From contig JAHYIO010000005.1 of assembly GCA_020543525.1 (NCBI GenBank), positions 248,001 through 312,000 of the forward strand: a stretch of DNA of 64,000 bases, written 5' to 3'. The notes under the pieces were generated by a model. That model did no database searches, had not been told where the DNA came from, and saw only the letters and a list, made by a program, of their open reading frames with translations. The position numbers and the translations under genes were made by a program. This document shows, piece after piece, positions 1,846 through 38,890 of this stretch (position 1 is its first letter; the number at the start of each line of letters is the position of its first letter). Source of the stretch: Coriolopsis trogii. Lineage: Eukaryota; Basidiomycota; Agaricomycetes; Polyporales; Polyporaceae.

Positions 1846-2137
1846 TGTACGCGGTAGCTCAATGAGGCCCTGTGCGATCCCTCGCGCACAATCGCATAAG
1901 TCGCTGTTTACTCTGGTACGCACGATGCTGCTCACCTCTCGCATTTCTGTTCCGCTAATCGACCGCGAGTAGGTCATAGTCGTGTCTCGTGCCGTATTTG
2001 AAATTCTCGAAACGATAGGAAATACAATGATAGTGCACAAGATGTTACAATGATGTCCGTGTCAAATACTCGTTCATTGATACTCTTCCAATACATCGTC
2101 ATAGACGATCGTCGCAGGACCTCTGCCAGATGGTGAG

Positions 2138-4578
2138 TCATGAGAATGACATATGTGCATGGTCGACGTACCGCTTCTCTTGTCCCTATGTAGATAGCAC
2201 AGCGCGAAGCGTCTAATCAGCCCTGGTTAGCCGAGACAAGCACTGGGATGGCTCACGTTATCATTCCAGCTGATCTGCGCCTTGAGCTCCGTCAAGCCGC
2301 ACAAGAGTATGATCCTATACACCTGGACGTAGAACGTGCCATGCGCTCCTTCTCTCGGCGTCCGAGTGACCTTCGAAGTGTCTGCGTGTATAGTACAGAG
2401 AGGCGTATACATCTCTGCGTTAACGATTGCATCAATCAACCAACGTAGAGATCAATTGGGACAGATGTCTTACCTGGCTCGATGTCCATCCAATGCGGTT
2501 CGGGATTGTTGCCCTTGTAGCAGGTGATCGAAGTAGTGATACTATTTAGCGTGCGCGGTTCGCGCGCCTCGCGGAAGTAGCACCGAGACATTTCCTGTGT
2601 ATCGCGCACACTCGTTCCCTGACAGAGTTGGGCACTGTCAGCGCTACGATACGGTTACGAGGACACCATCAAGACGCATGCCTTTGCCAGTATAGGTGAG
2701 AATCCGTTCGGGAGGACTACTCGACCGGATGGGCGGATGACCTTGAACATGCTTCTAGACAGGTGCTCAGGATTTGACGCATCGAAATCGTGGTTGCAGA
2801 CCACGCCGTAGGTCGTCCGGATGACGCGGGCCGAGACGAAGCGATCCAAGTAGAACGAGACCGCGCCCTCAGAAACGGCCTTGCCCCTGCCAGACGACGT
2901 AAGGTCAGAACAGCTAAAGACATCCTCGCCGGGTGAACGACATACGTGTGCGTGTCCGGCCTGCAGAGCGTCAGACCGAGAGCATCTAGGTTGCTCTTCA
3001 GACCCGCGTACAGCCAAGGGCTGGCAGCGAAGCCTCCAACGAGGAACGCGGTCTGCATGCGCCAATTGAGATGAGAAGTCACAGCGAGATTCACGAGGCA
3101 GATGACTACGGACCGAGATTGGACGCGAGGCATTCTGGCGCTGACGCTGCACGGCCGTAACAATGCCATCTAGTGAAGGGCGGAAGAATGACTCCATCTC
3201 CGTCCTGCAGAAGACACGCAGTCAGGGCGACGCACTGTATGGAACAGGGGTGAGACGACGCACCCTGTAAGTGTGAGCTGTCCACGTCTAATCTTCGCTT
3301 TGGGGTCGTTGCAGCCCATCGAGCCGAATTTGATGTAAGACGGATCACTAGAGTCCTTGAAGACGGGCTTTGTGTACTTGTCGAAGTAGTCAATCATCGT
3401 CTTGATATCTTCCTCGTTACCGTATGCCGAATTCTTGAGTCGTTCTGTCGTGTAGAAGAAGGTGAGCTTTCAGTATTGACCCAATACACCTTTTAGTGAT
3501 GCAAGCACGCACCCTTCAGAAACTCCGTAGCCCGCACATTCACTCTCGTTGATCCTTGCATGATACCTGATGGACGTGCGGTCGAATGTGAGCATGGTGA
3601 CTGATGAGTTGAACGATCGACACACATTCTGCCGACGCGATCTCCTCCACCGATAACGGCGTGGTAGAAACGAAAGAGTAACTGCTGATATCGACTGTTC
3701 CTCCGCCCGCGTCAACAACCATGACGCTCTGTCCAGCCTAGACCGGAGAAGCAAATGGTACTCAGTACATCTTCTTCACCCATGGATGCTCAGCGTACCT
3801 CGATAGTGTCCGACGTCAACCCACTCTGAATGCAGAAGAGCAGACTCGCTTCGCCCTCGGTGACGAAATGCACTCGTGCAGACCCCGCCGCATCGTCCGG
3901 CACGAGTCCCGCCATAACCGCCGCCTGGCGCATCTTGCCTTGTTGAGCGCCCTCCCAGCCATTCGGGTGGGATAAGACAAATTCGATCTGATCCTTGAGG
4001 GAAGCCCACAAAGTCAATCCACTCGCGTGCGTCTCGGTGATGTATGTACGTGCGCATGAGAACATGTACGATAGGAAGTCGGAAAAGACGTCGAGAACAG
4101 TCTTGCCGGGTGGGAGCGGGGGTAGGCTGCGCTTGTTCACCTCGTCGGAGTCAAGATGCTCAGGACGGAGGTGGAGCTTGAACCTAGGCACAGAACCAAT
4201 GGGCAGGCGGTCAAAGATGAGTAGATAATAGGACGCACCATTGTACAAAGAACAAATCCTCGTCCTCGGCATCAAGCTCGATTCCCGGAACAGCGGCCTC
4301 CGCGCCGACGGAGTGCACAGTACCGTCGGGACGATAGTACAAGATGGAAGGGATCTTCGAGTCTCCAGCTGCGTTCTCCTGTCCAGGGAAACTACGGCCA
4401 CTGTCAGACCCGATGAACGATGCTCATTTGAAGTGCATGCTCACCGGGTAACACCTAGGATCTTCGGCACCTCTCCAGGGTCCAGGATGGCGTACGAAAC
4501 ACCAGAGTAGGTCGTGCCGATGTCTATCCCCAACACGAGCTTCCGGGCAGATCCAGCAAACGGCTTGAGCGGCGCCAT
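2138..4578 (-). CDS. HSPA12-like Hsp70 family ATPase, copy 1
   Basis: Twelve exons on the minus strand: 4445-4578, 4239-4391, 3799-4183, 3626-3737, 3513-3566, 3264-3444, 3114-3204, 2946-3052, 2676-2886, 2474-2618, 2257-2414 and 2138-2185. They give about 592 residues. The N-terminus carries the actin-like phosphate-1 motif GIDIGTTYSG (residues about 16-25). Phosphate-2 is VVDAGGGTVD (about 231-240), and an adenosine-type motif FLVGGFAASPWL starts near 373. The lineup resembles HSPA12A/B rather than canonical DnaK: there is no recognisable substrate-binding domain and no EEVD tail. Exon lengths match the other two copies almost exactly. The donor of intron 9 (2676 versus 2667) is the one uncertain border. 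It is divergent from coiled-coil copy 2, with 442 bp between the start codons. Client and function are unknown. Confidence 0.88.
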
Positions 4579-5020
4579 AGTCGAGGACAGTGAGCCGAAG
4601 CGAGATGGAGAGCACAGATCAGCTTGCGACCATGAAGGTCTTATGCAGGATCAGGTTCGGTGCGTGCAGGCGGGCCTGGCAGAACGCGCGCCGGGTGTGC
4701 TGCGGTAATGAAAGACACGAGGGCGAGAAGCGTCTACTCAGCCTCCGCTCACACGCCTGCCCCTTCCTTGCTTTTTCTCGAAGTAGGGTCGCGCCCCGGG
4801 CCTCAGGAGCAACGCGCCGGAGGAGTGAGGATACTCCTTCTCACCTGCAGGACGCAAGAGGACCCTAAACGAAAGCGCATCGTGAGGGACGGTGCTTCAA
4901 ACGCACCGAGTAGGCATGTTTACAGTCTCGTGTGCACGGGACAAGTCGACCGAGAAGGCGCGGGTGCCTGCCGTCGCGTGCCATAAGTGCGAATCCAGTC
5001 AACTTTGCCTTCCGACGACA
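4579..5020. promoter_or_regulatory. Shared divergent promoter region 1
   Basis: This 442 bp gap separates the start codons of the Hsp70-like gene (minus) and coiled-coil copy 2 (plus). It holds no coding exon of its own. A TTCTCGAA-type inverted half-site pair, weakly like a heat-shock element, is visible near 4784-4795, but a single pair is not strong evidence. In-frame ATG codons upstream of 5021 (from 4892) leave the true start of copy 2 open. Confidence 0.45.
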
Positions 5021-6593
5021 ATGAGCGCCGACTCCCACCTTCGTCTCGCCGTCACTCTCTACCGTCTCGTACTCCGAGCTGTGTTTTCCATCTGCTGCTG
5101 TCTAGGTGGTCAAATCATTCGACTTCATCACCTCGTGCGCTCCGCCATCCTAGCGGTTTACAACCAGCCCTTATTGATCCTCCGCGAGGGCCCGATGGAC
5201 AGAATCAAACATATTTTCTCCGGAGGCGAGCGGACTTCGGTCTGGGTACAGGAACAGCGGAACCACTGGCCGTACCTGAGGAAAAGCCAGAAAATCTCGA
5301 GAGAGGAACATGAGAAGATTGTGAGCGAGAGGGACGAAGCACGAGCGCAGTACGAGAGGGAGAGGCAGGCCGGAGAGAAGAGCAGGAAGGAACGCGATAC
5401 CTTGAACGTGAGGATCCAAAGTCTCGAGGCGCGACTTGCGGACGTTTCAGGGGAGGCGGCGCGGAACGCGTCGAAGCTTGCCGAGCTACAACGGGAGATC
5501 GCGCACTATCAGAAGGAGCGCAGCAACACGTCCGCTCTCCTCGAGACACGTACGATGGAGCTGAAAGAGGCGCAAGCCTTCTTGCCCAAGGCGGACAACG
5601 TGGCAGACAAGGAGGTTGTGCGGATGGTCGAGCAGCTGAACACGAGGATCTTCCAGACCGCCGCGGCCTTGGCCGAGTCGCCGAAGTTCCAGTACGGGAT
5701 GCCAGGGGACATACGAGCCGTGGAGGAGGTGATGCAGAAGCATGAGAAGTACGATTGGCTTGGTCCGCACCTCCTACCCTCACTCCGTTCCATCAACCAT
5801 GCCGATGACCCTCTGCTCGTGCAAACTGCGCTCCAGGCGACCATGGCGGGATATGCACAGCGTCTTGCGACAAGTTGGGATCTAGGGAGGTGCGACGCTG
5901 AGGATTTGTGTAGCAACATCTATACGGGCATCAGGGAAACAGGTACGCACCGCAACGTCCTAATGCGCACGCCGTGCGCTTGACCTCGAGTCCGCAGAAC
6001 CTCAATCTGTAGCAGGCAAGTGGAGGGCAATGTGCCGCACGAACATCAAGAAGCTCTTGGACGTTGAGGACACAAAGCCAGAGAAGTATCAGATGCAGCT
6101 TGCGCAGGTCCTAGCCGAGGTGCTCGTCCTGTGCGGAGTAGTCAGTCCATTGGATGCGGTCCGAGACGTCATAGACGCAGGGTTCCGCAAGAAGCTCAAG
6201 GAGATAGCAGAGCTCGTTCTCGACATCCAGAGGATCACGGGCGAGGTCGTGGTGTCCCGTGAACTGACCATCACGGTGGCGACTCCCAACGTGTCGTTCG
6301 AGGCCGCCACTATGGATGACGAATGGGCAGATCCCAAGCATCCATCAACGTCCGGCCAAGTCCTGTGCACGACACATCTTGGTCTCCTCAGGGAGGATCT
6401 CGAAGGGAGAACAGTCAAGGTGATACCCCTCGTGAAGCCAAAGGTCGTCCTCAGGAGTATGCTCGAGCAATTGTGGGCAGAGATGACGAGTGCAGACCAG
6501 GTGGAACGAACGATCACAGTTCCGGTACGTGGCAAGTTCTCAATTCTGACAGGAAGTCAAAACGCTTACCGTATGTCGATTGGCCGCTATTAG
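5021..6593 (+). CDS. Coiled-coil family protein, copy 2
   Basis: Exons 5021-5942 and 6013-6593 give about 500 residues, with a phase 1 intron at the position shared by the whole family. Residues about 9-48 are hydrophobic with scattered basic residues and could anchor the protein to a membrane. Residues 93-185 are a long, highly charged coiled coil. The family block LETRTMELKEAQAFL follows, then LLVQTALQATMAGYAQRL and TSWDL, then after the intron AGKWRAMCRT, TGEVVVSREL, the MDDEWA motif, LCTTHLGLL and KPKVVLRSML. The C-terminal tail after that motif is longer than in copies 3 and 6, so an additional 3' intron is possible. The gene is divergent from Hsp70-like copy 1. The function is not known. 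Confidence 0.8.
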
Positions 6594-7421
6594 GTATGAC
6601 ATTCAAATCCCAAGACAGCGTGATTTGGTGGATGAACGTACTGTATAAACCCCTATTGCCTCCGTGCAGCGCCCATGTCTCCCTCGCTTGAATGTCATCG
6701 TCGATGCTACTCAGATATTCTGGGTGTGCCGCTTCTTAGTCAGCGTGAGCTACGCCACTTCAATTCGCCGGGACTCCTCGGCCGCGCGCAGAAGGCTTGA
6801 AGTGCGACTTTCCCTCATACTTATATGTTCTCGATTCCGTTCTTTGGTCAGAGCCATCACTGTGACCAAGGATGCTCGCTGTCAACGTTGCTTTACCAGG
6901 GCTCGGAGAATGATAGACAATGTCACCGCACCTCAGGCTCATCGACCAGTCCGGTGGTCACAGCGTACCGCTCCCAACGGCGTCCTCGTGGTTCTAATGG
7001 CGAATGCACTTCATGCGTAAGATAGCCCGATAAATCGACGATTTGTATTCATGTTGTCTCCCTAGAGACGAGAATGAGGATAGATGGCCGTATATGACGG
7101 TCAGAGAGAAGAGGTGGTCATCGCGTCCTACTGTCGTGAGTGGGATGACGCAGGCTAAGATTCTCTGACGAGATAAGATAAGATAAGCGTGTAGCGCCCA
7201 GTTGTGGGTCGGCCACCAGTACTCAGTGTTTACTTCAGACCATTCGAGGCAGACCGAGCACATATACAATGTAGAGCTCCAGGATTCAATTGATCTGTTA
7301 TAATTATTCTAGCAATCATGTGAGGACTATGTAGGCAACTTCGGGTGAGCACTAGTACCCAGGTACGATAGTAGCAGGTCCCCTGAAGGACATATGAGAT
7401 GAGAATACTACGCAACAAGTG
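6594..7421. other. Intergenic region between convergent genes
   Basis: No coding exon was recognised between the 3' ends of coiled-coil copy 2 and Hsp70-like copy 2. A short run of three GATAA units is visible near 7169-7186. Nothing else stands out. Confidence 0.4.
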
Positions 7422-9893
7422 TTATTCAGCAGAGTCTACTTGCCGCTGCTCTTTCCCCTGAATGGATAAGCAATTGTTATCATATCGTTTTGACCATTCT
7501 GAGACGCGCACACTCACGTTTTCCATCCAGCGGAGCTCAGCCTTCAGCTCAGTAAGTCCACACTGAAGGACTATACTAAACTCCTGGCGGTAATACTCTC
7601 CATTGATGCCCGTCATAGGGGTCTTAGAGACTCTCGAAGTATCCGCATGGACCTTACAAAGCTCCTCATATAGGTCTATCCAAGTTGTGGTCATTCGCAC
7701 AGTCTGAACTCAAGCCGCACATACCTGGCTCGACATCCATCCAGCGCGGATTTGGTTGATTCCCGCGGTAGCAGATGATCGGCTCTTGTATCGTTGCAAG
7801 AGAGCTCGAAACAAAAGCGACTCTAGAGTATTCCTTCGAGATCTCCTGCATACCTGTCGTGACAGTACCCTTTTGGCGTGGCATGAGATTGATGTATGCG
7901 TCTAGAGATGGCATGGTAAGATTTACCTTGTTCAGGATTATATCAAATGCATTAGGGAGTCGAACCACGCCTGAAATACTGCGGAACTTCAGACTGCTAC
8001 GAGAGATGTGATCGGGATCTGTTTCGCGATAGAATGTGCTGCATGGAGTCCCGTAAGTCAGTGGGGCGACGTGTTCGAAGACGAATCTTGGTTTGAGATA
8101 GGAGTATACAGCGCCTTCAGCTACCGCTTTGTTCCTAACTGAGGATAAGCACGGATCGAAGACACACAGACTAACACTCGTTATCTTGGACTCACGTGTG
8201 GTCACCCGGTTTGTAGATCTTCATGTCCAGCGACTGCAGTCTTTTCTGCAGACTAGAGTAAAGCCAGTGATTTGCGGCGAACCCTCCAATCAGAAGCACA
8301 TTCTACACACACATGATGGATCACGTCAAGGGCGACGGAGCATGGTTAGAAAAATATCGCTACTCACAGAAATCGGCTGCGAAGCCGTCTTTTTCTGCGT
8401 CTGTATTGCATCCACGATGCCATCGAGAGACGGCTGGAAGAGCGAAACCATCTCGGCGCTGCGAAGAAGCAATGGTTCAGTTACTTCGACATCGACGATG
8501 ACGATTCAACCTGGGTGCGTACCCAGTCACAGTTAGCTGACCATACTTGATACCCACGCTGGGGTCCTTGCATTGCGAATGTCCGAACTTAATGCGTGAG
8601 TCCACCTGCGAGTCTCGGAATGTCAACTTCGTATATTTGTCGAAATAGTCGAGCATCGATTCTCTATCCCTGTCGTTCCCGTATTTCGAATTCTTGAGGC
8701 GAGCTGCACATGACAATCGTCAAATTGACTGCCTACTAGTGTGCCGAGAAAATCATGCATCACTTACCCTCCAGGTATGCACGAGCTCTCCAAGTGACTC
8801 GCGTCGAGCCTTGTACAATACCTATGGACAGGCGACATCAGTCAGTCATACCGGGATGCGACAACGCATCCGGTACGTACAGGTCCTCGGTGAGATCTCT
8901 CGGACACTAGATGGGTTCGTTGGCAGAAACGAATAGCTGCTGAGATCTACAGTACCGCCACCAGCATCAACGATCATGACGCTCCGACCTGGCTGCATTG
9001 ACATTGGTCAGCGATTTATGGACGCGTATCACGATGCGAAAACCTTCTAACCCCAATTGCCTGAGAGGACAATCCACTTCGCACACAGAAGTGGAGTCCT
9101 GTTTCGCCTTCGGTTATGAAGTGCATCTGTATGTTGCTGTCCATGCCAAGCTCTGCCTTCAAGGCGCCATCCAAGACCGCCCGACGCAATTTGTACTGTT
9201 CCGCAATGTCCCATCCGTTCGGGTGCGCGACTACGATTTCGATCTTCTTGTTGAGCACATCCCATGGATAGATGTGGCTTTGGGTGATGTAATCGCGGGC
9301 ATGAGTGAGCAGGTATCCTAAGAAGTCGGTATAGACGTCGACGACAGTCTTGCCGGGAGGGAGTTCCAGAACGGGAATATCCTTCTGCGCGGACTCTTCG
9401 AAGCCGAGATCTCTAGGGCACAGATGGAGCTTGAACCTAGACTTACAGACATTAGCCAAGTGTCGCCGAAGCGCAGACATATATCACGAACCATTGCACG
9501 AAGTAGAGCCGCCGCTTGCGTATGCCATCAGGGTGTGAATTCTCTTCGCCGTCCTCATCCTCGCTCAGTTCCTCCTCAGCCTCCCTATCAACAGCGGCGG
9601 CCTGGGCGCCGATGGAGTGAACACTACCGTCTGCGTTGTAGTACAGAATGGAGGGGATTTTGCCTTCTCCAGCGGCGTGCTCCTGTCCCGGAAAACTGTA
9701 CCAGTCGTTAGCCCATGCTCGTGCCGGCGCGTTAAACCAAAAAAACAACGCACCAAGTGACGTCGTAAACTTCTGGTTCTTCTCCTGGCTTGAGCGCACG
9801 GGGGTCGAGAATAGCGTACGATACTCCAGAGTATGTAGTACCGACATCGACGCCAAGGATCAGTGTCAGATTGGTACCTTCGTGCAATGTCAT
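7422..9893 (-). CDS. HSPA12-like Hsp70 family ATPase, copy 2
   Basis: Eleven exons: 9754-9893, 9492-9695, 9052-9436, 8881-8992, 8768-8821, 8523-8703, 8368-8458, 8196-8302, 7725-8134, 7518-7675 and 7422-7457, about 625 residues. Phosphate-1 is GVDVGTTYSG (residues about 13-22), phosphate-2 is IVDAGGGTVDLSSY (about 250-263), and the adenosine-type motif is LLIGGFAANHWL (about 392-403). Exons 3 to 8 have exactly the same lengths (385, 112, 54, 181, 91, 107) as in copy 1. The intron that splits exons 9 and 10 in copies 1 and 3 is absent here. An acidic insert (E-E-L-S-E-D-E-D) enlarges exon 2. There is no EEVD tail. It is divergent from coiled-coil copy 3. Confidence 0.88.
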
Positions 9894-10668
9894 AGGGAGT
9901 ATGATGTATGGGAGGTCTTAATCTGGCGCGATGCTGAGGTGGAGGTGTTCTCCACCGTGGCAATCAAGCGTTGCCAGTCATTATATCAACCCCCAACGAC
10001 AACTTTGATAGGTTCCGACCAATTCCGTGTCCCTGACCTTCCGCACCATGCCCTCGCGGAAAACTGCTGCAGCATATGTCCGAGGGAGTTCAGGAGCTCA
10101 GGAGCTCAGTGATCTTCTCTTGCGCCTGGACTCTGGAGGGGATTCATATATCACGATCATCATCAACATTGTCACCACAGAGCGGCATGCTAGTCGCATG
10201 CTGGGCGCAAGCTGGTCAATCGTAGAGTCTATGTCTCCAACTCTAACCTTATATCTGCACGAGGCTGGCTGCCCAAGATGACAACTCGGATCGTATATAT
10301 CACGTCTGCTTCTCCACCATGTCAGTCAAGAATGCTCGATCGGCGTGTTTTAATTCACTCACAACCATCAAATAAAGGAGGCCCAATGGGTATGAGATAT
10401 CTACAATGCCGCGCAGTACTAGTCGGTTCTGAGACGAAGCTTCCGAATCTGCACCTCATTGATAGAGCGCTGTATTCGCGCGGCGGCAACCAGAACCCAA
10501 TGGCATGTCCTATGTGCACGATCAGGTGAAGAGTCACTCCGCTTGAGGAGAGCAGACATGACACCAGGATATATGGCTCACCGCAAGCAACATAGGTGGC
10601 TATCCGCCCCCTGCCCTCCTCAATTCACGGCCGTTCGTCCGACAAGTCAATCACCCCACTTCGCCGTA
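9894..10668. promoter_or_regulatory. Shared divergent promoter region 2
   Basis: This 775 bp gap separates the start codons of Hsp70-like copy 2 (minus) and coiled-coil copy 3 (plus). It is the longest of the three divergent gaps. No independent gene was recognised inside. In-frame ATG codons upstream of 10669 (for example at 10558) mean copy 3 could start earlier. Confidence 0.4.
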
Positions 10669-11944
10669 ATGCCGGATCGGATGTCGCAGATCCCAAAACG
10701 CTCCATCTTCATGCGGATCTTGACTATGCTCTTCCCCTGCTTGGTGCCAGCTCGTCGCGTGAGGGGCTTTCCCCAAGATGGGGAAGCAAGCGGCGAGCGG
10801 ATTGCCGAGCTCGAAGAAGGCAACAGTCCTCTTCTGCAGCCCAGTCAATGCGCGCAAACCGAGATCGAAAGGCTACGTACGCAGGTGGAACAGGAGCGTC
10901 AAGCGCGCATTGCGGTGGTAGAAGCAACCAACGAGCTCGAGGCGCGTCTCCGGGAAGCCGGAGAAGATAAGAAGGCCGCTGCAGCAAGGGCCATGGGGAT
11001 GGAGAAGACGATCGCGGACCTCAAGGCGCTGCTCGAGACACGTACCGCAGACTTCAACGTGGCGAAGACCTTCCTCACGAAAGCCAGCAGGTACTCGGGA
11101 AGGGAAGTCAAGGATAAAGTTGATGAGCTGAACTGGATCGTCTTCCAAATCGGGGCGCAACTGAGCGACACGCCTCAGTATGGAGCGAAAGTCGAGCGAG
11201 CAAACATCGAGTACCTTAACCCTGATCTCCTAGACGCCATCCGCCATTTCAATCATAGCGAGAACTCCATCCTCGTTCAGAGCGCTCTCCAGACTGTCAT
11301 GGTGTGGTATTTGTACCGGCTCGTGACCAGCTGGGACTTCACCGGGGAACATGAAGAATTTTGTCGCACCATCTACGTCCAACTTCGAGAGAAAGGTTAG
11401 CACAGTTCAACTCATGCCGCATTACATGGATTCAGATAACTACCTAGGTCCCGAGGCCGTCGCAGGAAGGTGGAGAGCCATGTGTCGCACCAGTATTCGG
11501 GAGTGCGCCAACGCCGAGGACCTCAATCCTCAACACCACGCCAACAATCTCATCTCTGTATTGCTACACGTCCTCGCTGCCTGCGGGGCCGTCAGGCCGC
11601 CTGGTGCCGCGAACGTCCTATCCGATGCCACGGTCAACCATCTTCGGACGAGTCTATCTGACTTGGTAGAGCTCGCGCTCAAGCTGAGGCAGATAATCGG
11701 AGAAGAGATCGTGTCGCCCGAGTTCCTACTTCAAGTCGTGCCTCCGAACGTGGTGTTCGATTCTGCCGTTATGGACGACGAGTGGGCGGGCCCAAGACCC
11801 TTGTCGGCGGATCACACCGGCATTGTACTGTGTACGACGTCTCTAGGTTTGATCGTGGAGGAGAACAATGCAGGTCGCGTGCAGACGAAGGTACTCTTGA
11901 AGCCGAAGGCCGTCTTGAAGAGCATCGTGGACCAGCATAGCTAG
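10669..11944 (+). CDS. Coiled-coil family protein, copy 3
   Basis: Exons 10669-11395 and 11448-11944 give about 407 residues, the shortest member. A short hydrophobic stretch (residues about 14-28, with basic flanks) could be a membrane or organelle signal. Residues 62-130 are coiled coil, leading into LLETRTADFNVAKTFLTK. The segment LVQSALQTVMVWYLYRL and TSWDF end exon 1. Exon 2 starts with PEAVAGRWRAMCRTSI and continues with GEEIVSPEFLLQ, PNVVFDSAVMDDEWAGP, LCTTSLGLI and KPKAVLKSI. The stop follows shortly after that last motif, as in copy 6. It is paired head-to-head with Hsp70-like copy 2. No known domain is recognised. Confidence 0.82.
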
Positions 11945-13443: not shown

Positions 13444-15103
13444 TTACTGCGCGTAGGCATCCTCGTCGTCGTACTTGCTATACTCGGTAGGAGCGAGGCT
13501 CTTCCTGTTACCCGAGGCGGGGTAGGCGGATCCGGGGGAAGGAGATGACGTGTTCTCAGGGGAGTAGAGCGTGCGCATGCCAGTACCATTGTAGTTTGCG
13601 GCGGGAGCCGGTGGTGCCGGACTACCGGGGACGTTACCACCCATTGCACGGCGTTCGGCGTACGCGCGCAGCATGGCATCGGGGGACATCACGTTCGCAG
13701 GCATAGGTTGCATGGGCATCGCACCCATGATTGGTGACTTCGGCGTCTGGTGAGTCGGACTGGGAGGAGTGGGCACAGAGAACAGCAATTCGTTGTGGTT
13801 TGCGCCAACTTCACCCGACCGCATCACTGGAGAAATACCATTTCAGCGCCATATCAACACATCTCATAAGCAGCAAACTTACTGGAGAGAGCAGGCATGA
13901 CTTCATCAATGCTAGGACGAGGGGCGCTCTCCTGGCCAGACATATGAGCACGGATGTCGTCGGGCGTCAAGGTCAATGGACCCGCAGCTTGAGTGGGTGA
14001 GAGGATGGGCGACGAGTTACTCGAGCTCTCCGTCGACAATTGGCGTATGGGAAGGGGCGGGAGTTCACTGTTGTGGAAAGCGCGCGAGGGGCGGGGGTCG
14101 GCAGCGAACGACACACGAGACACCCGGTTCTCGAAGGCGGAAGAGCGAAGGCCGGGGCGCAGTTGAGACATGTAGGGAGCGCCGCCTTCGAAATCTGCCG
14201 CAGAACCAATACCCGCCTGACCGCCCTCGACTGCAACAGTAGAACTGGGGCGAATAGCACCGAACGAGAACGAGGAGGCGCGGTTACCAGGAACGGCCAT
14301 GCTGTTGCGGATAGCGGCGTTAGCACCCGCACCAGAAAGTGATTTCCAGTCGGTAGAGATGGTTGACATGCGCTTGTCGACCATCTCGCTGAACACCTTG
14401 CGCTTCTCCCTGCTCTTCAAACGGCTCATCCTGACGTACGCAGCAGCGATGAGAGCCGCTATGAAGATGATGGGAATTATGACAGCAGCAGCGATGGCGC
14501 CCTTGGTCGGACCATGGGCCTCGACCGGTGTGTTGTTGACTTGCTCGACGGCGCCAGCAACAGCAGTAGAGGTGCGATCGCCAGAGTAGGTCGCAGAAAA
14601 AAGGGGGCCTGCAGCACCGTCGACCATCCATAGGGCTTCGTTGGAGGGAATGATCGTGAACTCCATGTTGATTGGAGAGGTGTAGTTCCACCATCCCGCC
14701 TGGAGCGTAGCATTGTAGCTGCCGGTTTTGTAGTCAACGTTCTCCCACTCGTGGAGAAGGGGATTCGAGGCGCTAGGAGCGTATAGGTAGATGTCGATGG
14801 TCGTTGCGTTGAGGCAAGCAGTGTCCCAGCTGATAGTGACTGGCTGGGAAGCATCGACGACCTGGCCCTTCGCGGGGGTCTTGTAGAGCCCGCCGGTAGA
14901 GCAGTCTAGTGATACCGTCAGTAACGGGGCAACCTTTGACTACACGCAGCCCCCCGACGACGCGACCGCCATCGCTCGCGCAGGCACAGATTGGAGGAAG
15001 GGCATGAAACGATTGTGAGATAGAGTAACTGACCATCGCGCTTCGCGTGTTTGTGCCCAACGGCAGAGTGACCGATACGGATGGTCTTGAAGCCGTTCTT
15101 CAT
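13444..15103 (-). CDS. Single-pass membrane protein with Ser/Pro-rich cytoplasmic tail
   Basis: Three exons (15034-15103, 13883-14905, 13444-13826) encode about 491 residues. After a short first exon the protein has a Cys-containing extracellular-type module (residues about 25-130) with several Asn-X-Thr/Ser sites. A Thr/Val linker leads to one strong transmembrane segment at residues about 159-181, flanked by R-M-S-R-L-K-S-R-E-K-R on the inner side. The remainder is a long Ser/Pro-rich tail ending in acidic residues. The layout, a small glycosylated ectodomain plus a long disordered tail, is common in fungal cell-surface or cell-wall sensor-like proteins, but no named family is recognised. 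The N-terminus lacks a convincing signal peptide, so an upstream exon carrying one may be missing from this model. Confidence 0.75.
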
Positions 15104-15465
15104 CGTGAAAAGAGTGTAGAGATAAAAGAGTGAACGAGAAAGAGAGGGTGAGGAAGCACTCGACGGCGAGGGCGACGACGAGGGACGACGACGGCAGCGA
15201 CGAGGACGACGGGGACGACGAAGATGACGGCGGGGAAGAAAGGGGCAACGACAACGGCGCCCCCCTCCCGGGAGAACAGGCGCCTTACGTACGTAACGCC
15301 ATATTAGTATTCGCTTACGCCTTGGCGTGGATTTACCAAGGACTATAACCTGTCTCTAGGCAACACAGACACGCAAGTAATAATCGTTGACTAACACATG
15401 ACATGAGCACTACTTATACATCTCTACGCCCCCTGCACTATACTCAAGAATACGAGTGCGGCCAC
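15104..15465. repeat. GAC/GAG-rich low-complexity stretch and gene gap
   Basis: Between the membrane-protein start and the PARP-UBC stop, bases about 15123-15245 are an imperfect purine-rich tract of GAC, GACG and GAG units, which is CT-rich on the coding strand of the membrane-protein gene. It is probably the pyrimidine-rich 5' leader or core promoter of that gene, a common layout in filamentous fungi. No other feature was seen. Confidence 0.5.
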
Positions 15466-20000: not shown

Positions 20001-20650
20001 CTCTCGATGGTCGTGGATAGTGCGCTTGAGAGCTGGGGGCATGAGTGGCTCAGAAGTTGATGTGACTTTGTCGACTTGCCGCAGCAGCGTGCTGCGTAGC
20101 CTCCAATCTTTGGTCTCTGCTTCTCCGACTTCTCTAGGGCCCGGAGACAGTGAGGTCGTGCGTGAGGACGATGGCGTAGTCCAAGAGACCACTGCAGCAC
20201 GACAGGATGCCACGAGATTTAACTACTTAACGTGTCTGACTCGACCTGAGGCTCGGTGCCGAGGCAGTACCTTGTGGTTTCTTCAGTCCCTTTCTGCACT
20301 CTTGTATGTCGAGACAGTCTCGTCTGCGGGATGTAGAAACGACGACCAGAGATGATGAACGTCGGGGCCACGCCACTGACGCGTTGTTAGCGCTGGAGGT
20401 AGCGCTGTCGGGCGCTCAACATTGAACATAACATAACATATACAAATCAATACATGCGTTCCACACGATCGCTCGTACGTAGCACTGTCGTGTTCGATTA
20501 TTTAAACTAGAAGGGCTTCCACTATAAGAGTGTATTACTAGAGTTCGGCGCGAGACGGACGATGACGCTCACTCGACTGCTGCCTCCGTAGTAATCCCGA
20601 CTGAAAGTGTACCGGTCGAGTCCAGGCGATGCAACTTGCGCTTGATACCT
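20001..20650. other. Intergenic region
   Basis: Upstream of the PARP-UBC gene. A longer in-frame N-terminal extension of that gene up to 20213 is possible. The short direct repeat ACATAACATAACATA lies near 20430-20446. No separate gene was recognised. Confidence 0.35.
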
Positions 20651-21922
20651 TGCAGAATTCTAGACAGGCCTTCCCGTGGAGACTATGTGGCTTTTGCGCA
20701 GGTCGAGGACCACCCTCGCCGACGCGGCCTTGTGCACAGAGGCCATTGTATCAAAGGCTTCCCGGACAATCGAGATCGACCAGGCGTTTCGACGGTTTCG
20801 TCTCCTCGAGCAGCGCGTGTGCGTCGTTCACCACAACAGGAAAGTGGATAGGTGTGATTGAGACGCAGACCTCATCCACAGCACTGGAAGGTATTTCAGG
20901 ACGTCGATTGTCGCTCTGAAGGTTGCCTTAGTACTGTCGAAGGTGTGATGGCCGATGCGGTCCGTCATGATCTTGAATGTCCTCAGGTTCGTGCACCTGT
21001 GGAGAGAGAGCACCTCCCACTCCGCTGAGAAGTCTTGCAGAAGCAGCAGATTGTCGGTTAGCCTGGCAAGGATGAAACGCTGGCTTACGGATCGTGGCCA
21101 CGGGGAGTGGGCGGCCTAAGGCAATCGTGGCGAACGCTTGCGGACTAAACGGGTCTGTCTGACCCATGAGGCGTTGAGAGGCTTTGATAGAGACGGGACA
21201 GAGGGTACGGCCGGCGACCTGAAGCAGATAACCCATTTGCGCGACCTGGTCCCTGTCGTCACGCCCTCCGTCGATGACAAAGTCGCTGAGGGATTTCCAA
21301 TAAAGCATCCTAGACGGATGGAATAACTGCTTGAGGGTTGCTAGGTGAAGGGCGCCCAATATCAGGTTGTCAATACGGAGGTGAGCTGGAAACGAGATCA
21401 CAGAGAGACCCGGATCCGGTGCTGAGCCATCGAAGTTGGATGTACCATGGGGTTGCAGAGATGCAAATACTCGATGTGGGCGAAGAGACCGAGGAAGCGG
21501 TAGAGGTCGTCCACGCTCGACTCGCCGGTTAAGTTGCAAGACTGGACCCTCAGGAGCGTAAGATCGACCACGATCGGCCTTTGAAGCACGGTATCCTCTT
21601 ATGGACTTGATATGTGTATATCTCTGAGGTACAGCACGCGCAAGCCTTTCAGGTTGCTGAACAAGGCGGAATCCTACACCGATACAGACAAATACAGTCG
21701 TTTGATGTGGGGTGTGACCTTTGAAGAGGAGGTCACGAAAGAAGGGAGGTCGCTAAAAGCCGCCTTCTTGTGTGATGCAGACCAGGCGGAGAAGAGGTAG
21801 TAGCGGCTCGCGGGTCCCCACGAGTGGCACACGAGCGAACACGACCTCAATGACGCAGGGACATCGTGAACGTGGTCGATGATAGCGTCAGTTATCTCCC
21901 CAGGAAGCTTCATTGCCTTCAA
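20651..21922 (-). pseudogene. Degenerate F-box gene
   Basis: The N-terminus (LPGEITDAIIDHVHD, SLVCHSWGPASRYYLF) is clearly an F-box of the same subfamily as the intact genes at 30149 and 55585. The frame is broken by an in-frame TAG at about 21674-21676 and a TAA near 21602. It then shifts to another frame between about 21440 and 21470, where the homologous LRR-like part continues (PAHLRIDNLILGALHLATLK). A conserved intron position is recognisable near 21030-21085, followed by a block matching the second exon of the intact genes. A last homologous block (VVLDLRKSHIVSTGRPV) lies in yet another frame near 20660-20750. No GT-AG intron removes the stops. This is most simply a dead copy. Confidence 0.75.
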
Positions 21923-22683
21923 ACCCTGGTTAAATGACTAATTGCGTCTGATTAGGCTAGCTGCGAGTAGAGCAAGAGAAAGTCCATGTCAGGATCATCC
22001 TTATCTGCATGGCGAGAGAGTCGACCTTTACCGGCGATGACTCGGAAGTCGAGTATAATTGGATCATTTGGATGCTCCTTAACACCACTTAGCAGCGGCT
22101 GTATAGGTAGAGAGACAACGTCGTGTAAGTCAAGACCATGAAGGCAATGTCGGTGAGCGGATGGACTTGATCATGATCATTGGCGTTTGTCTTCTTTGTC
22201 TCGAGGAACCGGCGTCAAGGCTGCCTTTCCTGGCTCATTACGTCATGCGCACGAGCACTGAAATTGGCGATAGGTTTGCCTGAGATGGCGCAGTCACATA
22301 GTATGGGTATGATGTCTTTCAAGAACCATGGACATGACTGACTTTCAGAGGCACATACAAAGAATCGCATCAATCCGCAAGGCACTGTTAGGAATGGCAT
22401 GCGCACGATGACACGTACTACTAGTCCGACCGGGGCCTGCCAACAAACAATTGTGCCCTCATTTCAGGGTACTATCAGCCGTCGCGTATACGCAGTAAGT
22501 TGGAGATCACATTCGTTGCACATCACGTCCCTCAAGCTATTGTAAAGACTTAGAAGATTGAAAAATAACACATCAATATCCGAGGGTAGTAGGGGAACAC
22601 ATGGAACTCACAATCCGCGGACTCAGCCTCGCTCCAGCCAACTTCCATTGAGAGCAGGGGGACACTCGGTCCCAACATCTGCT
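21923..22683. other. Intergenic region
   Basis: No gene or relic could be recognised. The segment separates the 5' end of the dead F-box copy from the 3' end of coiled-coil copy 4. Confidence 0.35.
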
Positions 22684-24109
22684 TCAGTGACATCGATTGG
22701 GAGCGTCAGCACTTGAACTTGGAGAGACTGCATGTCGCTGACGTAGGCACTCACCAGACTCGACCACAGCACGTTCATTATGATAGCCTCCGGGCATGTC
22801 TGCCTTCGACCCGCCGTGACGACTCAGGACGACCTTGCACTTCGATATACATTGCGTTCGAATCGGCCCTAGGTGCGTCCCAGACTTCGCGACGTCGGTC
22901 AGGTCCTCCCTCCACTCCGCCATCATTCCCAACTGTAGCGCGTACAGCACGGTAGCTCCATGTCCCGCGCTCGGCCCAGCGGTTCCCGTGTTCCCACCGG
23001 GTTCAGTTTCCATTGTGGCGGGGTCGAAGACAGCGCCCGGGATCGCTGCGAAGAGAGACAGTTCGCGTGACAGGACACGCTCTCCGATCATCTCGTGAGC
23101 CTTCGCGACGTTGATGGCTACATCACGAATATCGCTCGCAAACTCCGTGCTGAGGACATTGGAGAGACTCGGGCGTGGGCCTGTCACGCCGCATGCCATG
23201 AGCACGTCCACGACGATGTCGGACAGAGATTGCATGAGGTATTCTTGTCTTTTGTCGGCGTCAGGAAGCGCCTTGATGGTCGTGCGGGCAAGAACTCTCC
23301 ATCTGCCGGCGACCGACTGAAGTTCTGCATTGGTTTCAGCTAAGTTTTGGGGCGTAATGATGGGCTATGTACGCACCTCTTCCTCTCATTGCCTTGTGGA
23401 GTTCCTGTACAATCCTCATGCGACTCGAGTCGGATGAGATGTCGAGGTCCCAGGTGCTCGTGACGCGCTGGATGTGTTGTACCAACACAGCCTGGATGGC
23501 GGTCCACGCCGTTTCGACCATATCTTGTGGGCGTATCTCACGGAGAGTCTCTAAGAATACATGTCCCAGAAGACACGACTCGCCAATTCTGTGACGAGCC
23601 TCCATGTTCGCCGCGGTCGGATAGTGGTACTCGAACTCGGGTGCATCGGCGACGTTGGACGCCAGCTGGAGTAGTGCCTCATTGATAGCGCTGACAATGC
23701 TGACGACTTGCCTCTCCGCTGCGAGGTCTTCTTTGACTAGGAACGTCTCCGCTAGATGCAGCTCCTTCGTCCTCAATCTAAGACGCTCTTCGGCATCCCG
23801 AGACTTCTCCTCCGACCGCTCGAGGTGGTCCTCGAGAGTCGCAATGCGTTGCAACTGATCGTTCGCCTCGGCTCGGAGGCGCCTCGTATCTTCCTCTGCT
23901 CGTACGCATCTCACCTTGTATGCCTCCATCTCCTCTCTGATCCGCACAAGCTCTCCCGCACCTCTGCCTTGCTCCTCGTCGACTATCCTACTTGCAGGAG
24001 GGGTGTCGCGTCGTATCAGTGGCCTCGTATGTCCTTTCAGCCACCCCGGCATCCAGAATATCACATAGTTGGCACAGGCTACAGCAGAATTCAAGAGCTT
24101 AAGAATCAT
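22684..24109 (-). CDS. Coiled-coil family protein, copy 4
   Basis: Two exons, 23377-24109 and 22684-23339, give about 462 residues. The N-terminal 26 residues are hydrophobic (ACANYVIFWMPGWL) and may anchor the protein. Residues about 52-120 form the coiled coil. The signature RLRTKELHLAETFLVKED follows, then TAIQAVLVQHIQRV and TSTWDLD. The intron is phase 1 and exon 2 starts before LQSVAGRWRVLARTTIK. Further landmarks are MIGERVLSRELSLFAAIPG, VFDPATME and the LQLGMMAEWRED block. Copies 4 and 5 share RELSLFAA, VFDP and EWRED wording that copies 1-3 and 6 lack, so they form a subgroup. No Hsp70-like partner is adjacent: the region upstream (24110-25225) leads to copy 5 in the same orientation. 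Confidence 0.8.
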
Positions 24110-25225
24110 AGCAAGCAGAGAGGCGGCGTACTGACGGGTTCAGCCACGGAAGCGGGCATGAAAACCCATGTACCTCACAACTCGTAGGCCATGAGGATCC
24201 AGCACGCTTTGAAGGGGCCATCTCTGACTTCGACCTCGACGGGGGGATGTCCGCGACATAGCCGTGGGGCAGCCTTGAGTTCCGTGCCTAGACCCATGCT
24301 CGCGAAGTCTGTGAAGGACGCATACCTCGTAGTCGCGGCACCCTCGCATCTAAGTGCGTGTTTCTGATACTGAACTTTCTTGCTTGAGGACTACCGCAGC
24401 ACACAAGGTGTAGGAGGAGGATCGACGACAGGGCATGTTATACGCATGCTCCTCCACCCTTTCACAATACGACACCTCGGTGAAAGCGTGCTGTGTGGGC
24501 TTGTCCTAGCTAGAACGTCCTAGGGCGCGTATCCGGCGAACCTTCACCAGCTAGTCGGTGGTAGCTCGAAGACTCGGGCGTGCTTGCCAAATGAGAGATG
24601 TGGTGATACAACGACGGTTTGCAATGAGTTAGAGGAGACAGATTCGTGTGTTCAGCGTTCAATACATGCATACTCGCCAGTGCGATCGAAGAGGAGATAG
24701 GCCGAGCGGCGAGAATGGACGGCGAGGCGGAGAGTCGGTTGGCACGAGCTGGCAGTGGTAAACGACCAAGTCATCCGGCGCTTATCGCAATCTTGCGCGT
24801 TCGGATTCAGAATCACGCTACATACTATGACTTTGTTTTTGCAACGTCCATCTGAGTCTACACGTCGAGTCACTCGTTTCACCCCGGTACTTACTTGCGA
24901 CTTTGATTGGGTAAGACTCCATTCTATGCGCGTATCTACAACTGATACTATTCTGTGAGTCAGAGCGCGACGCATCATGTCGAGTACTCGTACTGGTGAT
25001 TGGCAGCCGACTCGGAGATGTGGAGTCCTACGGCCTCAAGGGACGCATTCGAAACATAGCGTGTGCATTGTCGTGAATATGCGTAGGTTAACGTGATAAT
25101 TGCAAGCCCATGTAGTCAAACGTCCGCTCGACATCTCCCAACATCCTGATTCCTGATGGACCTCAATGTAAGCATATTACCGGACAAACGTTATGCGGGA
25201 ACGCATTATCACTCACCGAGGTGAG
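24110..25225. other. Intergenic region, 1.1 kb
   Basis: Promoter side of coiled-coil copy 4 and 3' side of copy 5. No Hsp70-like gene or relic was found here, so copy 4 is unpaired. No other feature was recognised. Confidence 0.4.
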
Positions 25226-26634
25226 TCACGGCTTCTTGATGATCACCGCGGTCTTCAAGATGGTACATCGCTGATGAATAGCGTCGCGGGTGTTGGTCCC
25301 GGCCACAGTACTCTCTATGTCCTCCCTCCATTCCGAGATGACACCCAGCTTCGTCGCACAAAGCACCCCAGCATCCTCAGCGGCGATAGCATTTGTAGGA
25401 CTCGACTCGGCTTTCATTGTTGTGGGATCGAAGACGACGCCCGGGGTGGCTGCAAAGAGAGATAATTCGCGCGACAGGATACGCTCTCCGATCATCTCGT
25501 GAACCCTCAGGACCTTGTCGGCAATGGTCCTGATGTCGCTCTCAAACGCCCTGGTGAAAGTCTCGAAAATCGTTATACGCGAGCCAATCGCACCGCATGC
25601 GAGAAGCACGTCAACGACGACGTTCGAGAGAGACCGCATGAGGCCTTGTCGTCGTTTGTCCCTGACACCAGGAAGTATCTTCATGGACGTATATGCAAGG
25701 ACTCTCCACCTCCCTGCGACAGCTTGAAGCTCTGGAACCTGGATTAGCCAATGCACGATCATAGTCGATCCTGTTGTGCGTACGTACCCCTTCCTCTCAT
25801 TGTGGTGTGTATTTCCTGAAGGATCCCCGTACGACTGTTAGGCGGTGCAACGAGGTCCCAAGTGTCGATGGCGCGATGGATGTACTCGACCAGCACGGCC
25901 TGAAGAGCCGTGCACAGAACTTCCGCGATCTCCTGTGGTGGTGTGTTCGAGAGCACCTCCAAGAAGGCGGCCCCTAGAAGGCGTGACTTGCCAATCGCCC
26001 GACGGGCCTCTATGCATACGGCCGTGGGATGTTGACATTGGAACTCGGGTGCGTCGGTAGCGTTGGACGCTAGCTGGAGTATGGCGTCATTGATGGCTCG
26101 AACAGCGTCCACCACCTCCGTCTCCGACGATAGGTCTTCCTTATGGAGGAAGGAATTCGCCACCTGTATCTCCTGGGTTCTACTCTCAAGGCGGACCTCG
26201 GCCTCTCTCCACCTGTTCTCTGCGCATTCGAGGTTGGATTCGAGTTTTGTGACTCGGTCGTCATACCAAAGCTTCAGCTCCTCGGCGTAGTCTCGCCATT
26301 GTGTATACTTCTCCTCGACTATCCTCAACGCATCGTCCTTTCGCTTGTTCTCCTCCTGCAGATCCTGCACCATGCGCTGCAATTGCTCTCTCGTCTTCAA
26401 CTGATTGTCTGCGACGTGGTCTGTACGCCGCTGAAAAGGCAGAATAGCAAACGAGGAGTTGCGCGACATGAAGAGGCAAACCTGAGAGCGTTGCCGTCGC
26501 AAGTCGAGTACGATCTGAAGTGTGGATGAAGGCGGAGGCAACAACAGAGTAGCTGTAGGCGGCCGCATGCATCGGTCATTGCACGAGGCATGCCCCACGG
26601 TCTCTCGTAGGGTTCTCGAGAAGCTGCGTTTCAC
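25226..26634 (-). CDS. Coiled-coil family protein, copy 5
   Basis: Exons 25788-26634 and 25226-25731 give about 450 residues. A second in-frame ATG at 26466 would remove a poorly conserved N-terminal 56 residues and may be the true start. Residues about 78-160 are coiled coil, running into LESRTQEIQVANSFLHKED. The block TALQAVLVEYIHRA and TWDL close exon 1. The acceptor at 25731/25732 was chosen because it restores ELQAVAGRWRVLAYTSM. Exon 2 continues with MIGERILSRELSLFAATPG and VFDPTTM, then CATKLGVISEWRED. It is the closest relative of copy 4 and stands head-to-head with Hsp70-like copy 3. The function is not known. Confidence 0.8.
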
Positions 26635-27082
26635 CGCAATTGGATCAATCTCACGTCACAGGCAGCAATAGATCATGCGGCAACACGTTGTGTTCCCCTC
26701 GCGGTAGGATGTAACTGAGTCCGATCTTTGTCGAGTGTCGGCGACAGTTGCATGGGCTTCTATCCTACGATTATGTATAGATTCGTGTACGTAGATCCCT
26801 ACGTTCACTATGGTGAAGGGTTCGAAGCACAGGGTCGCTCAGCGGTACGTCCTCTCACTTCTGACCTTCATACCAGAAACTCAGCCATACATGCTGCAAA
26901 CATGAGTTTGGATACTCGGAGTCATCGTGGGTCTGCATGCACCCAGAACAAACTTTCGTTGATCCCTTACCGCAGCACCGCTTTATTCTGGCTGGGATAG
27001 GTCGCCGTCATATATCGCGGTTTCGACACTTGGCCGTCCGCAACAACCTTCCTCGCTCTCGCCGTCTCTTCCATTGGCAGAC
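26635..27082. promoter_or_regulatory. Shared divergent promoter region 3
   Basis: This 448 bp gap separates the start codons of coiled-coil copy 5 (minus) and Hsp70-like copy 3 (plus). The relative order of the two families matches the other two pairs: each is transcribed away from the other. No coding exon is visible inside. Confidence 0.45.
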
Positions 27083-29468
27083 ATGCAAGAGCTCGTACCG
27101 TACAAGGAGTCAAAGAGAAAACTTGTTCTCGGCATCGACGTCGGTACCACATATTCCGGGATGTCTTATGTTATCCTCGAGCCAGGCAAAACACCGCAGA
27201 TAGCATCGGTAAACAGGTACATAGAGCTCGACTCATTGATGCGTGATGTGCTCATATCAGCGATCCATAGGTACCCTGGGCAAGAGAACAGACCAGCGGA
27301 TTGTCGAATTCCTTCCATCTTGTACTACGGCTCCGACGGATTAGTTCAACTCGTGGGCGCACAGGCAGCCGCTACCGACGTACAGCAGAGGGAGGATTAC
27401 GACTCGCTTGTGCTGGCAAAATGGTACGTACACCTTGTCTCATACACGGCGATGTCGACACATGTCACACATAGGTTCAAACTCCACCTACGGCCTCGTC
27501 ACCTGAACGATATAGGCCCAATCCCTTCACTTCCGCCTGGCAAGAGCGTGGTCAACGTCTTTGCCGACTTCCTACGCTATATGTTCAACTGTGCACGCAA
27601 GTACATTCAGGAGACCCGCGTTCATGGCGAGTCCATCTGGGAAGAGCTCGAAGGCGACATCGAGTTCGTACTGGGCCACCCAAACGGTTGGGGAGGGCCC
27701 CAAGAGCAACAAATGATGGAAGCCGCAGCGGAGGCAGGTCTCGTCCCTGCAACCGCCGAAGGGTTTGCCCGGATCCACTTTGTCACGGAAGGGGAGGCTG
27801 GTCTACACTTTTGTCTTCGAGATGGACTCATCAACGACAGCCTTAAGGTGAGCACCGATTATCAACGAGGCATACGCCTGACCTTTTATTACAGGCCAAC
27901 AATGTCATCATGCTACTCGACGCAGGAGGTGGTACTGCGGACTTGAGCACATACGTCTATCGGACTGCCGAGCCATTGTCCGTCGAAGAACTATGTGTCC
28001 CAGAATGTGAGCACCTATTCCGATCTGACTACAGTCTGCTCACACCCATGTTTCGCAGGTACACTATCAGGCTCTACCTTCGTCAACATGGAGGCTGAAA
28101 CGTACATTCGAAGTAAGCCGCTCTCTCTCGTTATTACATGGGGCAGTGAACCAAGCGACCTCTGGCCCTCCAGAGAAATTGGACGGGACGAACTACGGCA
28201 CCGACGAAATCGTGAATCAGATCATGCTCCATTTTGACGAAGACGTCAAGCCCGCGTTCAGCAACGAACCCAAACGCGGCTACTACCTTCGAACTGGCCT
28301 GATCGGTAACGATCCTCGGGTCAATATCAAACGCGGCACACTCACTCTGACAAGGTCTTACGCGTAAATCTTGCTCCTCATTTCTGCGAGAGTGCTGAAG
28401 ACATCTGCAGGGAAGAGATGACGTTGTTTTTCAAGCCTGTGCTCGACAGGATACTGGGATGTATACAGGCGCAGTTTAGCAATCCCAAGGACCGGGCGCC
28501 ATCTGTGAGTTCTCTGAAGACCTCCGTATACTGTCGTGCTGAGCTATGAAAACAGTCCGTGTTCCTCATCGGAGGGTTCTCTGCCAACGAGTGGCTCTTC
28601 AATTCCCTCAAGAACACTCTTGAGAGAATGGGAGTCAGTATATCCCGGCCGGACCAGCATGCGTACGTCTGATTGCTCTAGATTCCATTTTTAAGTCGTG
28701 CGGCTGATTAATTGGCAACAGGAGCAAGGCCGTCGCCGATGGTGCTTTGTTGTATTACCTTCAGCATCATGTGAAGTATCGCAAAACAAAGGCCACAGTT
28801 GGTGTCCCAGTCGACATCCGCTTCAACCCATCCGACAAGGAGCATCGTGCTCGCATAGATTCTGTGGATGTCGGTCCTATTGGTATGTTCTTGAGCAAAG
28901 GCTTCTCGCCGATTGTGAAGAAGGTAATCTTGACAATGTCTCGCCCATGCTCGGTGCTAAACTATCGGATACATTCCAGGGTAGACTCGCACGCGATGGA
29001 GAGACGTTTCAGAAGGAGTACCGTGTGGTATATAGTAGGAGTAAGACTCTTGACGAAGTGGAAGACGAGGTGCTAGCATACAATGGAGACAAGGACGAGC
29101 CACAGTTCACGGATGACGAACCCGGTGAGTGAACTGCGAACTCGATCAATGCGATATCTGAGTCTCATGCTCTCAACATCAGACAAGTTCAAGCGTCTAT
29201 GTTTGATTCGGGCGGACGTTTCTAAGCTACCTGCATCACCAGATCTACCCCTGCCGTTAGCTGCATGGGCGTCATCCAAGGTCTACAAGGTCATCATAAC
29301 CTTCGGCGCGACTATGACAGCCAAGATTGGCTGGGTTGAGAATGTGCGTGTCCGATTATCGCATCTGTCCTCGGACATAGGCACTTATGTGGTCATGCGG
29401 ATTGCTTACAGGGCGAGGAGAAGGAGTACGCCTATTCTCTATGTCTGAATCAAGCATTAGCTCACTAG
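27083..29468 (+). CDS. HSPA12-like Hsp70 family ATPase, copy 3
   Basis: Twelve exons: 27083-27216, 27271-27423, 27475-27847, 27895-28006, 28059-28112, 28174-28354, 28393-28504, 28556-28662, 28722-28923, 28980-29124, 29183-29343 and 29412-29468. They sum to an open frame of about 596 residues. Phosphate-1 is LGIDVGTTYSGMSY (residues 16-29). Phosphate-2 is LLDAGGGTADLSTY (about 227-240), with Ala replacing the Val of the other copies. The adenosine-type motif FLIGGFSANEWL begins near 376. The C-terminal third has a beta-rich look (VITFGATMTAKIGW) but no canonical Hsp70 substrate-binding domain and no EEVD. Exon lengths 112, 54, 181 and 107 are identical to the other copies. HSPA12 proteins are distant Hsp70 relatives of uncertain client range. 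Confidence 0.9.
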
Positions 29469-38528: not shown

Positions 38529-38890
38529 CGTCTCCCCCGTCTTTCGCAGATATATGAAAGGTAGTGGATGAATACTATGCTGGCTTAGTACTGAGCAACG
38601 GAGCTGGATGGGTTTTCGCGAGGGGTTGTGTGAAGCAGAGAGCAATGATTGGAAGTGTTAGCTACTACGCTTGCGACAATACCTGTTCGCGCCTTGTAGT
38701 CGACATAGTCGTCGGGCGAAGAGCAAGTTCAAGTTGTAGTCACGGCCCGAAGCTCCGCCTGAATGACGCCAACTAGACGCGCTGGCAGAGGAATTCAACC
38801 AGAGACGTCTATCGCCTTGCACATCTCTCCCAATCGTAACTCGAGTCGCAACCCATGGTCATATGGTAGGTAATCAAGCACTATGCAAAG
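38529..38890. other. Intergenic region
   Basis: Short gap between two tandem F-box-like genes of the same subfamily. No further feature seen. Confidence 0.35.

What the first reader, a model, noticed from the sequence alone, without database searches (positions are those of the whole stretch)
2138..29468. Three head-to-head pairs of an HSPA12-like Hsp70 gene with an unnamed coiled-coil gene
Every Hsp70-like gene in the window is divergent from a coiled-coil family gene across a short gap: 442 bp at 4.6-5.0 kb, 775 bp at 9.9-10.7 kb and 448 bp at 26.6-27.1 kb. Repeated, orientation-conserved linkage of an ATPase and a non-enzymatic coiled-coil protein suggests co-regulation and perhaps a two-component chaperone/adaptor or allorecognition-like system. 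I do not know of a description of this pair. Function is inference.
Basis: partly seen in the sequence, partly recalled or inferred. Interest (0 to 1): 0.88.

Follow-up and report, generated by a model that had tools for sequence, protein, structure and literature searches.

The report
Fungal Hsp70 and coiled-coil gene pairs
In a wood-decay mushroom and its relatives, a lid-less Hsp70 chaperone gene keeps turning up beside a gene for an uncharacterised coiled-coil protein, which suggests that the two proteins work together, although this has not been tested in cells.

Summary
The window lies in a 38.8 Mb polypore-like fungal genome. Searches there found five HSPA12-like Hsp70 genes, all divergent from a member of one coiled-coil family: three in the window, a fourth pair across its left edge, a fifth on another contig with a 1.6 kb gap. 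Nine coil genes were found; four are unpaired. All nine share one intron site; no known Pfam family fits them. In related Polyporales both families often lie on one contig, and in two Ganoderma species 5 of 7 listed Hsp70 genes with positional tags have a coil gene one tag away. Distances in the two families agree across ten pairs (r = 0.92), as expected if pairs duplicate as units. The Hsp70 model is confident: ATPase domain plus beta domain, no helical lid. The partner has a long coiled coil and a conserved domain without a significant fold match. Best reading: a duplicating two-gene module in which an HSPA12-type ATPase acts on, or with, a dedicated partner. Interaction and co-expression are inferred; allorecognition is unsupported. 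Ten paper searches listed no description of the pair.

The parts
2074..4578 (-). HA: HSPA12-like Hsp70 gene, 13 exons, 600 aa
   Evidence: DIGTTYSG and VVDAGGGTVD motifs; Lentinus tigrinus relative P0020 of 595 aa, 80% identical
4579..5020 (.). 442 bp intergenic region of pair A (possible bidirectional promoter)
   Evidence: no full heat-shock element, no 8-10-mer shared widely with the other gaps
5021..6593 (+). CA: coiled-coil gene, 2 exons, 505 aa with N-terminal hydrophobic stretch
   Evidence: relatives
7352..9893 (-). HB: HSPA12-like Hsp70 gene, 628 aa, last intron of GC-AG type
   Evidence: 54% identical to HA
9894..10710 (.). intergenic region of pair B (817 bp; 775 bp if the ATG at 10669 is used)
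10711..11944 (+). CB: coiled-coil gene, 393 aa
   Evidence: 40% identical to CA
22684..24109 (-). CD: coiled-coil gene, tandem duplicate of CC, no Hsp70 of its own
   Evidence: repeat D1; 48% identical to CC; sister to CC in the tree, 100/100
25226..26469 (-). CC: coiled-coil gene, partner of HC
26470..27082 (.). intergenic region of pair C (613 bp; 514 bp if the ATG at 26568 is used)
27083..29511 (+). HC: HSPA12-like Hsp70 gene, 590 aa
   Evidence: 45% identical to HA
439..1845 (+). C4: coiled-coil gene of a fourth pair (start at 439 or 646); its Hsp70 partner starts 48 bases left of the window at C5:247953, minus strand
32154..33628 (+). CE: coiled-coil gene without an adjacent Hsp70; upstream neighbour is an F-box-like gene
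   Evidence: groups with Lentinus brumalis P0135 in the tree, 100/99

Best explanation
This is a conserved two-gene module of Polyporales. One gene codes for an HSPA12-type Hsp70: an ATPase domain plus a beta-sheet substrate-like domain without the helical lid. The other codes for a coiled-coil protein with a conserved C-terminal domain. I propose that the coil protein is the dedicated partner of the ATPase: it oligomerises through its coiled coil, in some copies sits on a membrane through an N-terminal hydrophobic helix, and its conserved domain (perhaps through the acidic MxDEWADP stretch) is bound and released by the Hsp70 in an ADP/ATP-dependent way, as HSPA12A binds acidic clusters in the SorLA tail. 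The shared gap (0.4-0.8 kb in the cluster) may keep the two in step. Shown here: the pairing in this genome, tag or contig linkage in relatives, divergence as units, the structural class of the Hsp70, its conserved ATP-site residues. Inferred: co-expression, physical interaction, nucleotide control, membrane site.
Against: No direct evidence of interaction or co-expression. Four of nine coil genes have no Hsp70 neighbour (CD, CE, C5:237 kb, C33:1347 kb). Linkage could persist only because pairs duplicate locally. No shared promoter motif. No Hsp70-coil fusion among the 120 listed Hsp70s. The N-terminal hydrophobic helix is missing in many copies. Nine of 25 rows of the linked group lack DEW, among them CC, CD, C4 and CE here, and the paired C33a lacks it too. 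The C33 pair has a 1.6 kb gap, and none of its nine close coil relatives shares a contig with a listed Hsp70 (inconclusive, as only the best 120 of 1379 Hsp70s were listed).
Confidence: 0.5

Rival explanations
1. Linkage by descent only: one ancestral divergent pair with a shared promoter was copied locally many times. The genes are neighbours because they are copied together; the proteins need not touch.
For: Four of five pairs are in one cluster of about 32 kb; distance correlation is what unit duplication gives without any interaction; unpaired coil copies exist.
Against: Pairing is also kept on another contig, whose coil protein is only 18-23% identical to those of the C5 contig, and by tag in Ganoderma; pair C is inverted as a unit without being broken.
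Confidence: 0.3
2. The coil protein is a co-chaperone (nucleotide exchange factor or lid substitute), comparable in layout with GrpE (layout recalled): long paired helix, helical domain and a C-terminal beta hairpin that docks on the ATPase domain.
For: The Hsp70 lacks a lid; the coil model has helix 55-165, helical domain 169-360 and hairpin 410-425, the last in a conserved stretch (VLCTTxLGL...LLKPKVVL).
Against: The C-terminal part of the model is below pLDDT 50; none of GrpE, BAG or HspBP1 among the Pfam matches of 20 members and no significant fold match; unpaired copies.
Confidence: 0.12
3. A recognition (allorecognition or immunity) system with diversifying partner genes.
For: Several Hsp70s on one contig in some species, and a coil protein that diverges about twice as fast as its Hsp70.
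Against: No effector, NACHT/NLR, HET or toxin-like domain was seen in the scanned proteins of the pair; no polymorphism data; no paper held with the terms Hsp70-like, allorecognition and basidiomycete together.
Confidence: 0.05

Closest known systems
HSPA12A/HSPA12B (atypical Hsp70s of animals)
   Same: Divergent Hsp70-type ATPase; one Trametes relative (P0058) is labelled 'Heat shock 70 kDa protein 12B' by its source; HSPA12A binds a membrane receptor tail in an ADP/ATP-dependent way (PMC6345817).
   Different: No genome-linked coiled-coil partner is mentioned for HSPA12 in the parts of the two papers I read; here several genes lie in a cluster. No animal HSPA12 sequence was compared.
DnaK-GrpE and other Hsp70-co-chaperone pairs
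   Same: Hsp70 fold with ATP-site residues kept; a partner with a long coiled coil.
   Different: The partner has no significant sequence or fold match to a known co-chaperone; no lid; tail is not EEVD.
Divergently transcribed, co-regulated gene pairs of fungi (recalled, general)
   Same: Short shared intergenic region, orientation kept inside this genome.
   Different: Recurs with both partners multiplied; co-regulation untested.

Membership tests
Hsp70 superfamily (actin-like ATPase) | Hsp70 nucleotide-binding domain fold | tested here: met
Hsp70 superfamily (actin-like ATPase) | Phosphate-1, phosphate-2, adenosine motifs and catalytic lysine | tested here: met
   DxGTT, DxGxGT and GGF columns invariant and K98 at least 90% in 53 sequences; lines up with canonical Hsp70 (on hand-joined canonical sequences). 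That the lysine is catalytic in Hsp70 is recalled
Canonical Hsp70 (PF00012) | Pfam gathering score | tested here: not met
   15.8 bits (a 262 aa join of HA) and 16.3 bits (P0020), cut-off 20.6. One of the 120 listed relatives, P0075, does carry a precomputed PF00012 label
Canonical Hsp70 (PF00012) | Helical lid after the beta substrate domain and EEVD tail | tested here: not met
   No helix after residue 498 in the model; HA ends LEEYQ. The two features are recalled
HSPA12 (HSPA12A/B) | Closer to HSPA12 than to other Hsp70 groups in a tree | not tested
   No HSPA12 reference sequence was on hand; only a source's label for P0058
HSPA12 (HSPA12A/B) | ADP/ATP-dependent binding of a client | not testable with these tools
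   needs pull-down
GrpE / BAG / HspBP1-type exchange factor (coil protein) | Sequence or fold match to such a factor | tested here: inconclusive
   None of these among Pfam matches of 20 members; best fold match not significant, model weak at the C-terminus

The most novel reading that the evidence does not exclude
A previously undescribed fungal two-component chaperone system: a lid-less HSPA12-type ATPase whose client or lid is supplied in trans by a dedicated, co-duplicating coiled-coil protein, with partner specificity diverging from pair to pair so that each cluster holds several insulated pairs.
Probability: 0.25. Interest if true: 0.78.

Novelty: new variant of a known kind. Interest (0 to 1): 0.56.

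Why it matters
HSPA12-type Hsp70s look numerous in mushroom-forming fungi (1379 relatives at E <= 1e-10; of the best 120, which alone were listed, those with a species name are Agaricomycetes by my knowledge), yet the ten paper searches listed nothing on their role there. A genome-linked partner gives a concrete, testable handle on what an Hsp70 without a lid does, and several diverged pairs in one genome allow tests of partner specificity.

Tried and rejected

Of 49 distinct coil proteins it leaves out 13 on contigs under 80 kb or without a contig. It entered 74 of the 120 listed Hsp70s; the other 46 were compared and add no shared contig. Contigs were matched by species and length only. The chance figure assumes 38.8 Mb genomes and independent species, and its 12 species were those already seen to carry both, so it is not evidence and is not used.
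Full report
Setting. The window is C5:248001-312000 of an unnamed 38.8 Mb, 39-contig fungal assembly. The closest named relatives of its genes are in Lentinus, Polyporus and Cerioporus, so it is probably a member of the Polyporaceae (inference).

Gene models. I built exon models by hand from GT-AG (one GC-AG) introns and reading frames. HA (4578-2074, -), HB (9893-7352, -) and HC (27083-29511, +) are 600, 628 and 590 aa and share most intron positions; HB lacks one that HA and HC have. Identity to HA is 54% and 45% (on the models without the last exon). The Lentinus tigrinus relative P0020 is 595 aa and 80% identical to HA, which supports the model. The coil genes CA, CB, CC and CD have one phase-1 intron just before a conserved xx(S/A)VAG(R/K)WR stretch; the other five coil genes of the genome have an intron at the same place. 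CA-CB and CC-CD are the closer pairs.

Genome-wide count. HA as query finds exons of five genes only: the three in the window, one at C5:245.65-247.94 kb and one at C33:1257.2-1259.6 kb. The most divergent of these, H33, finds the same five (E up to 1). The canonical Hsp70s found with PF00012 are elsewhere. The tool scores only its best candidates, so a remoter gene could be missed. Coil queries find nine genes: C5:237.2-238.6, C4, CA, CB, CD, CC, CE, C33:1261.2-1262.9 and C33:1347 kb; one more hit on C6 (E 0.26) was set aside. Five of nine lie divergent on the 5' side of an Hsp70, and five of five Hsp70s have one. Gaps: 442, 817 (or 775), 613 (or 514), 692 (or 485) and 1599 bp, by choice of start codon. 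For the 1.6 kb gap I did not rule out a small gene between the two. Pair C is turned round relative to A, B and the edge pair D, yet still divergent.

Other species. The Hsp70 search gave 1379 relatives, best 120 listed; the two coil searches gave 12 and 44, 49 distinct; those with a species name are Agaricomycetes by my knowledge. Ganoderma sinense: Hsp70 tags GSI_03362, 03370, 03372, 03393 and 11491; coil tags GSI_03363, 03371, 03373, 03390, 03392. Four of five Hsp70s have a coil gene at plus or minus one. G. adspersum: V8D89_000554 (Hsp70) and 000555 (coil); 000572 has no listed coil neighbour. Tag neighbours are a proxy for adjacency; orientation is unknown. Of 36 coil proteins on contigs of at least 80 kb, 19 are on a contig that carries a listed Hsp70 (12 of 29 contigs). 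In the tree of 47 coil proteins a clade of 27 (100/100) holds six coil genes of this genome (CA, CB, CC, CD, CE, C4) and 21 foreign rows, of which 18 have a listed same-contig Hsp70 and three have no long contig. The other 20 rows hold C33a with close relatives, C33b, C237 and proteins of other orders; none has a listed same-contig Hsp70. For that second group the lack is inconclusive, because the Hsp70 list is cut at 120 and ranked by similarity to the window's genes.

Matching branching. For ten pairs (five here, four G. sinense, one G. adspersum) the two distance matrices correlate with r = 0.92 (p 0.00015), 0.94 without the C33 pair, 0.90 for the nine pairs without G. adspersum. This fits pairs that duplicate and diverge as units. 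It does not show interaction, since unit duplication alone gives it. Coil distances are roughly twice the Hsp70 distances.

Proteins. The Hsp70 model (P0020, 53 sequences) has pLDDT 90 and pTM 0.87: an ATPase domain to about residue 420, then strands to about 586 with no helix after 498, so no lid. Foldseek and VIA place it with DnaK and BiP. ATP-site residues are conserved, so it is probably an active ATPase (inference). The coil model (P0001, 12 sequences) is weaker, pLDDT 63: helix 2-30, long helix 55-165, helical domain 169-360, hairpin near 410-425, the last in a part below pLDDT 50. Conservation over 47 sequences rises from residue 151 to 435 and is lower in the coil itself and the N-terminus. 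N-terminal hydrophobic stretches are strong in CA, C237 and several proteins of other orders and absent in others, among them CE, C33a and most Ganoderma copies; start codons are uncertain. DEW of an acidic MxDEWADP stretch is in 16 of 25 rows of the Hsp70-linked group (exact DEWADP in 8) and in 0 of 22 other rows. In this genome only CA and CB have it; the paired CC, C4 and C33a do not. This was found by looking, not predicted beforehand.

How it may work. HSPA12A binds the SorLA tail through acidic clusters in an ADP/ATP-dependent way and changes its trafficking (PMC6345817, abstract and Discussion). By analogy I propose that the fungal Hsp70 binds its coil partner in a nucleotide-dependent way, the coil protein being a scaffold or adaptor that is membrane-bound in some copies. 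Each step beyond the pairing and the Hsp70 fold is inference.

Verdict. The pattern is real, recurs in this genome and is supported in relatives by tags and contigs; the mechanism is open. It is a new variant of a known kind (an Hsp70 with a dedicated partner), not a proven new system. The statement that no description was found rests on the ten paper searches named under Tried and rejected, in an open-access library and with capped listings.

Noticed in passing
window 29804-31012 (+), 38870-40138 (+), 55648-56583 (+): Three open frames with F-box-like domains at or just above the Pfam cut-off; one lies between HC and CE.
   Followed up: no
window 13854-14939 (-): Frame with a Kre9/KNH-like N-terminal domain just below the Pfam cut-off.
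   Followed up: no
G000 C33:1261.2-1262.9 kb (L069): C33a groups with relatives in other Polyporales on short branches, unlike the fast-evolving cluster copies; it may be a conserved older copy of the family.
   Followed up: partly
G000 C5:237.2-238.6 kb (L067) and relatives P0157, P0164, P0167: Coil proteins with a strong N-terminal hydrophobic stretch outside the Hsp70-linked group, suggesting that a membrane-anchored form is widespread in Agaricomycetes.
   Followed up: partly
P0013-P0019, P0032, P0102: Relatives of about 800-1100 aa that match the Hsp70 profile two or more times, either real tandem proteins or fused gene models.
   Followed up: partly
window 7352-7457 (-): HB's last intron starts with GCAAGT, a GC-AG intron.
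   Followed up: no
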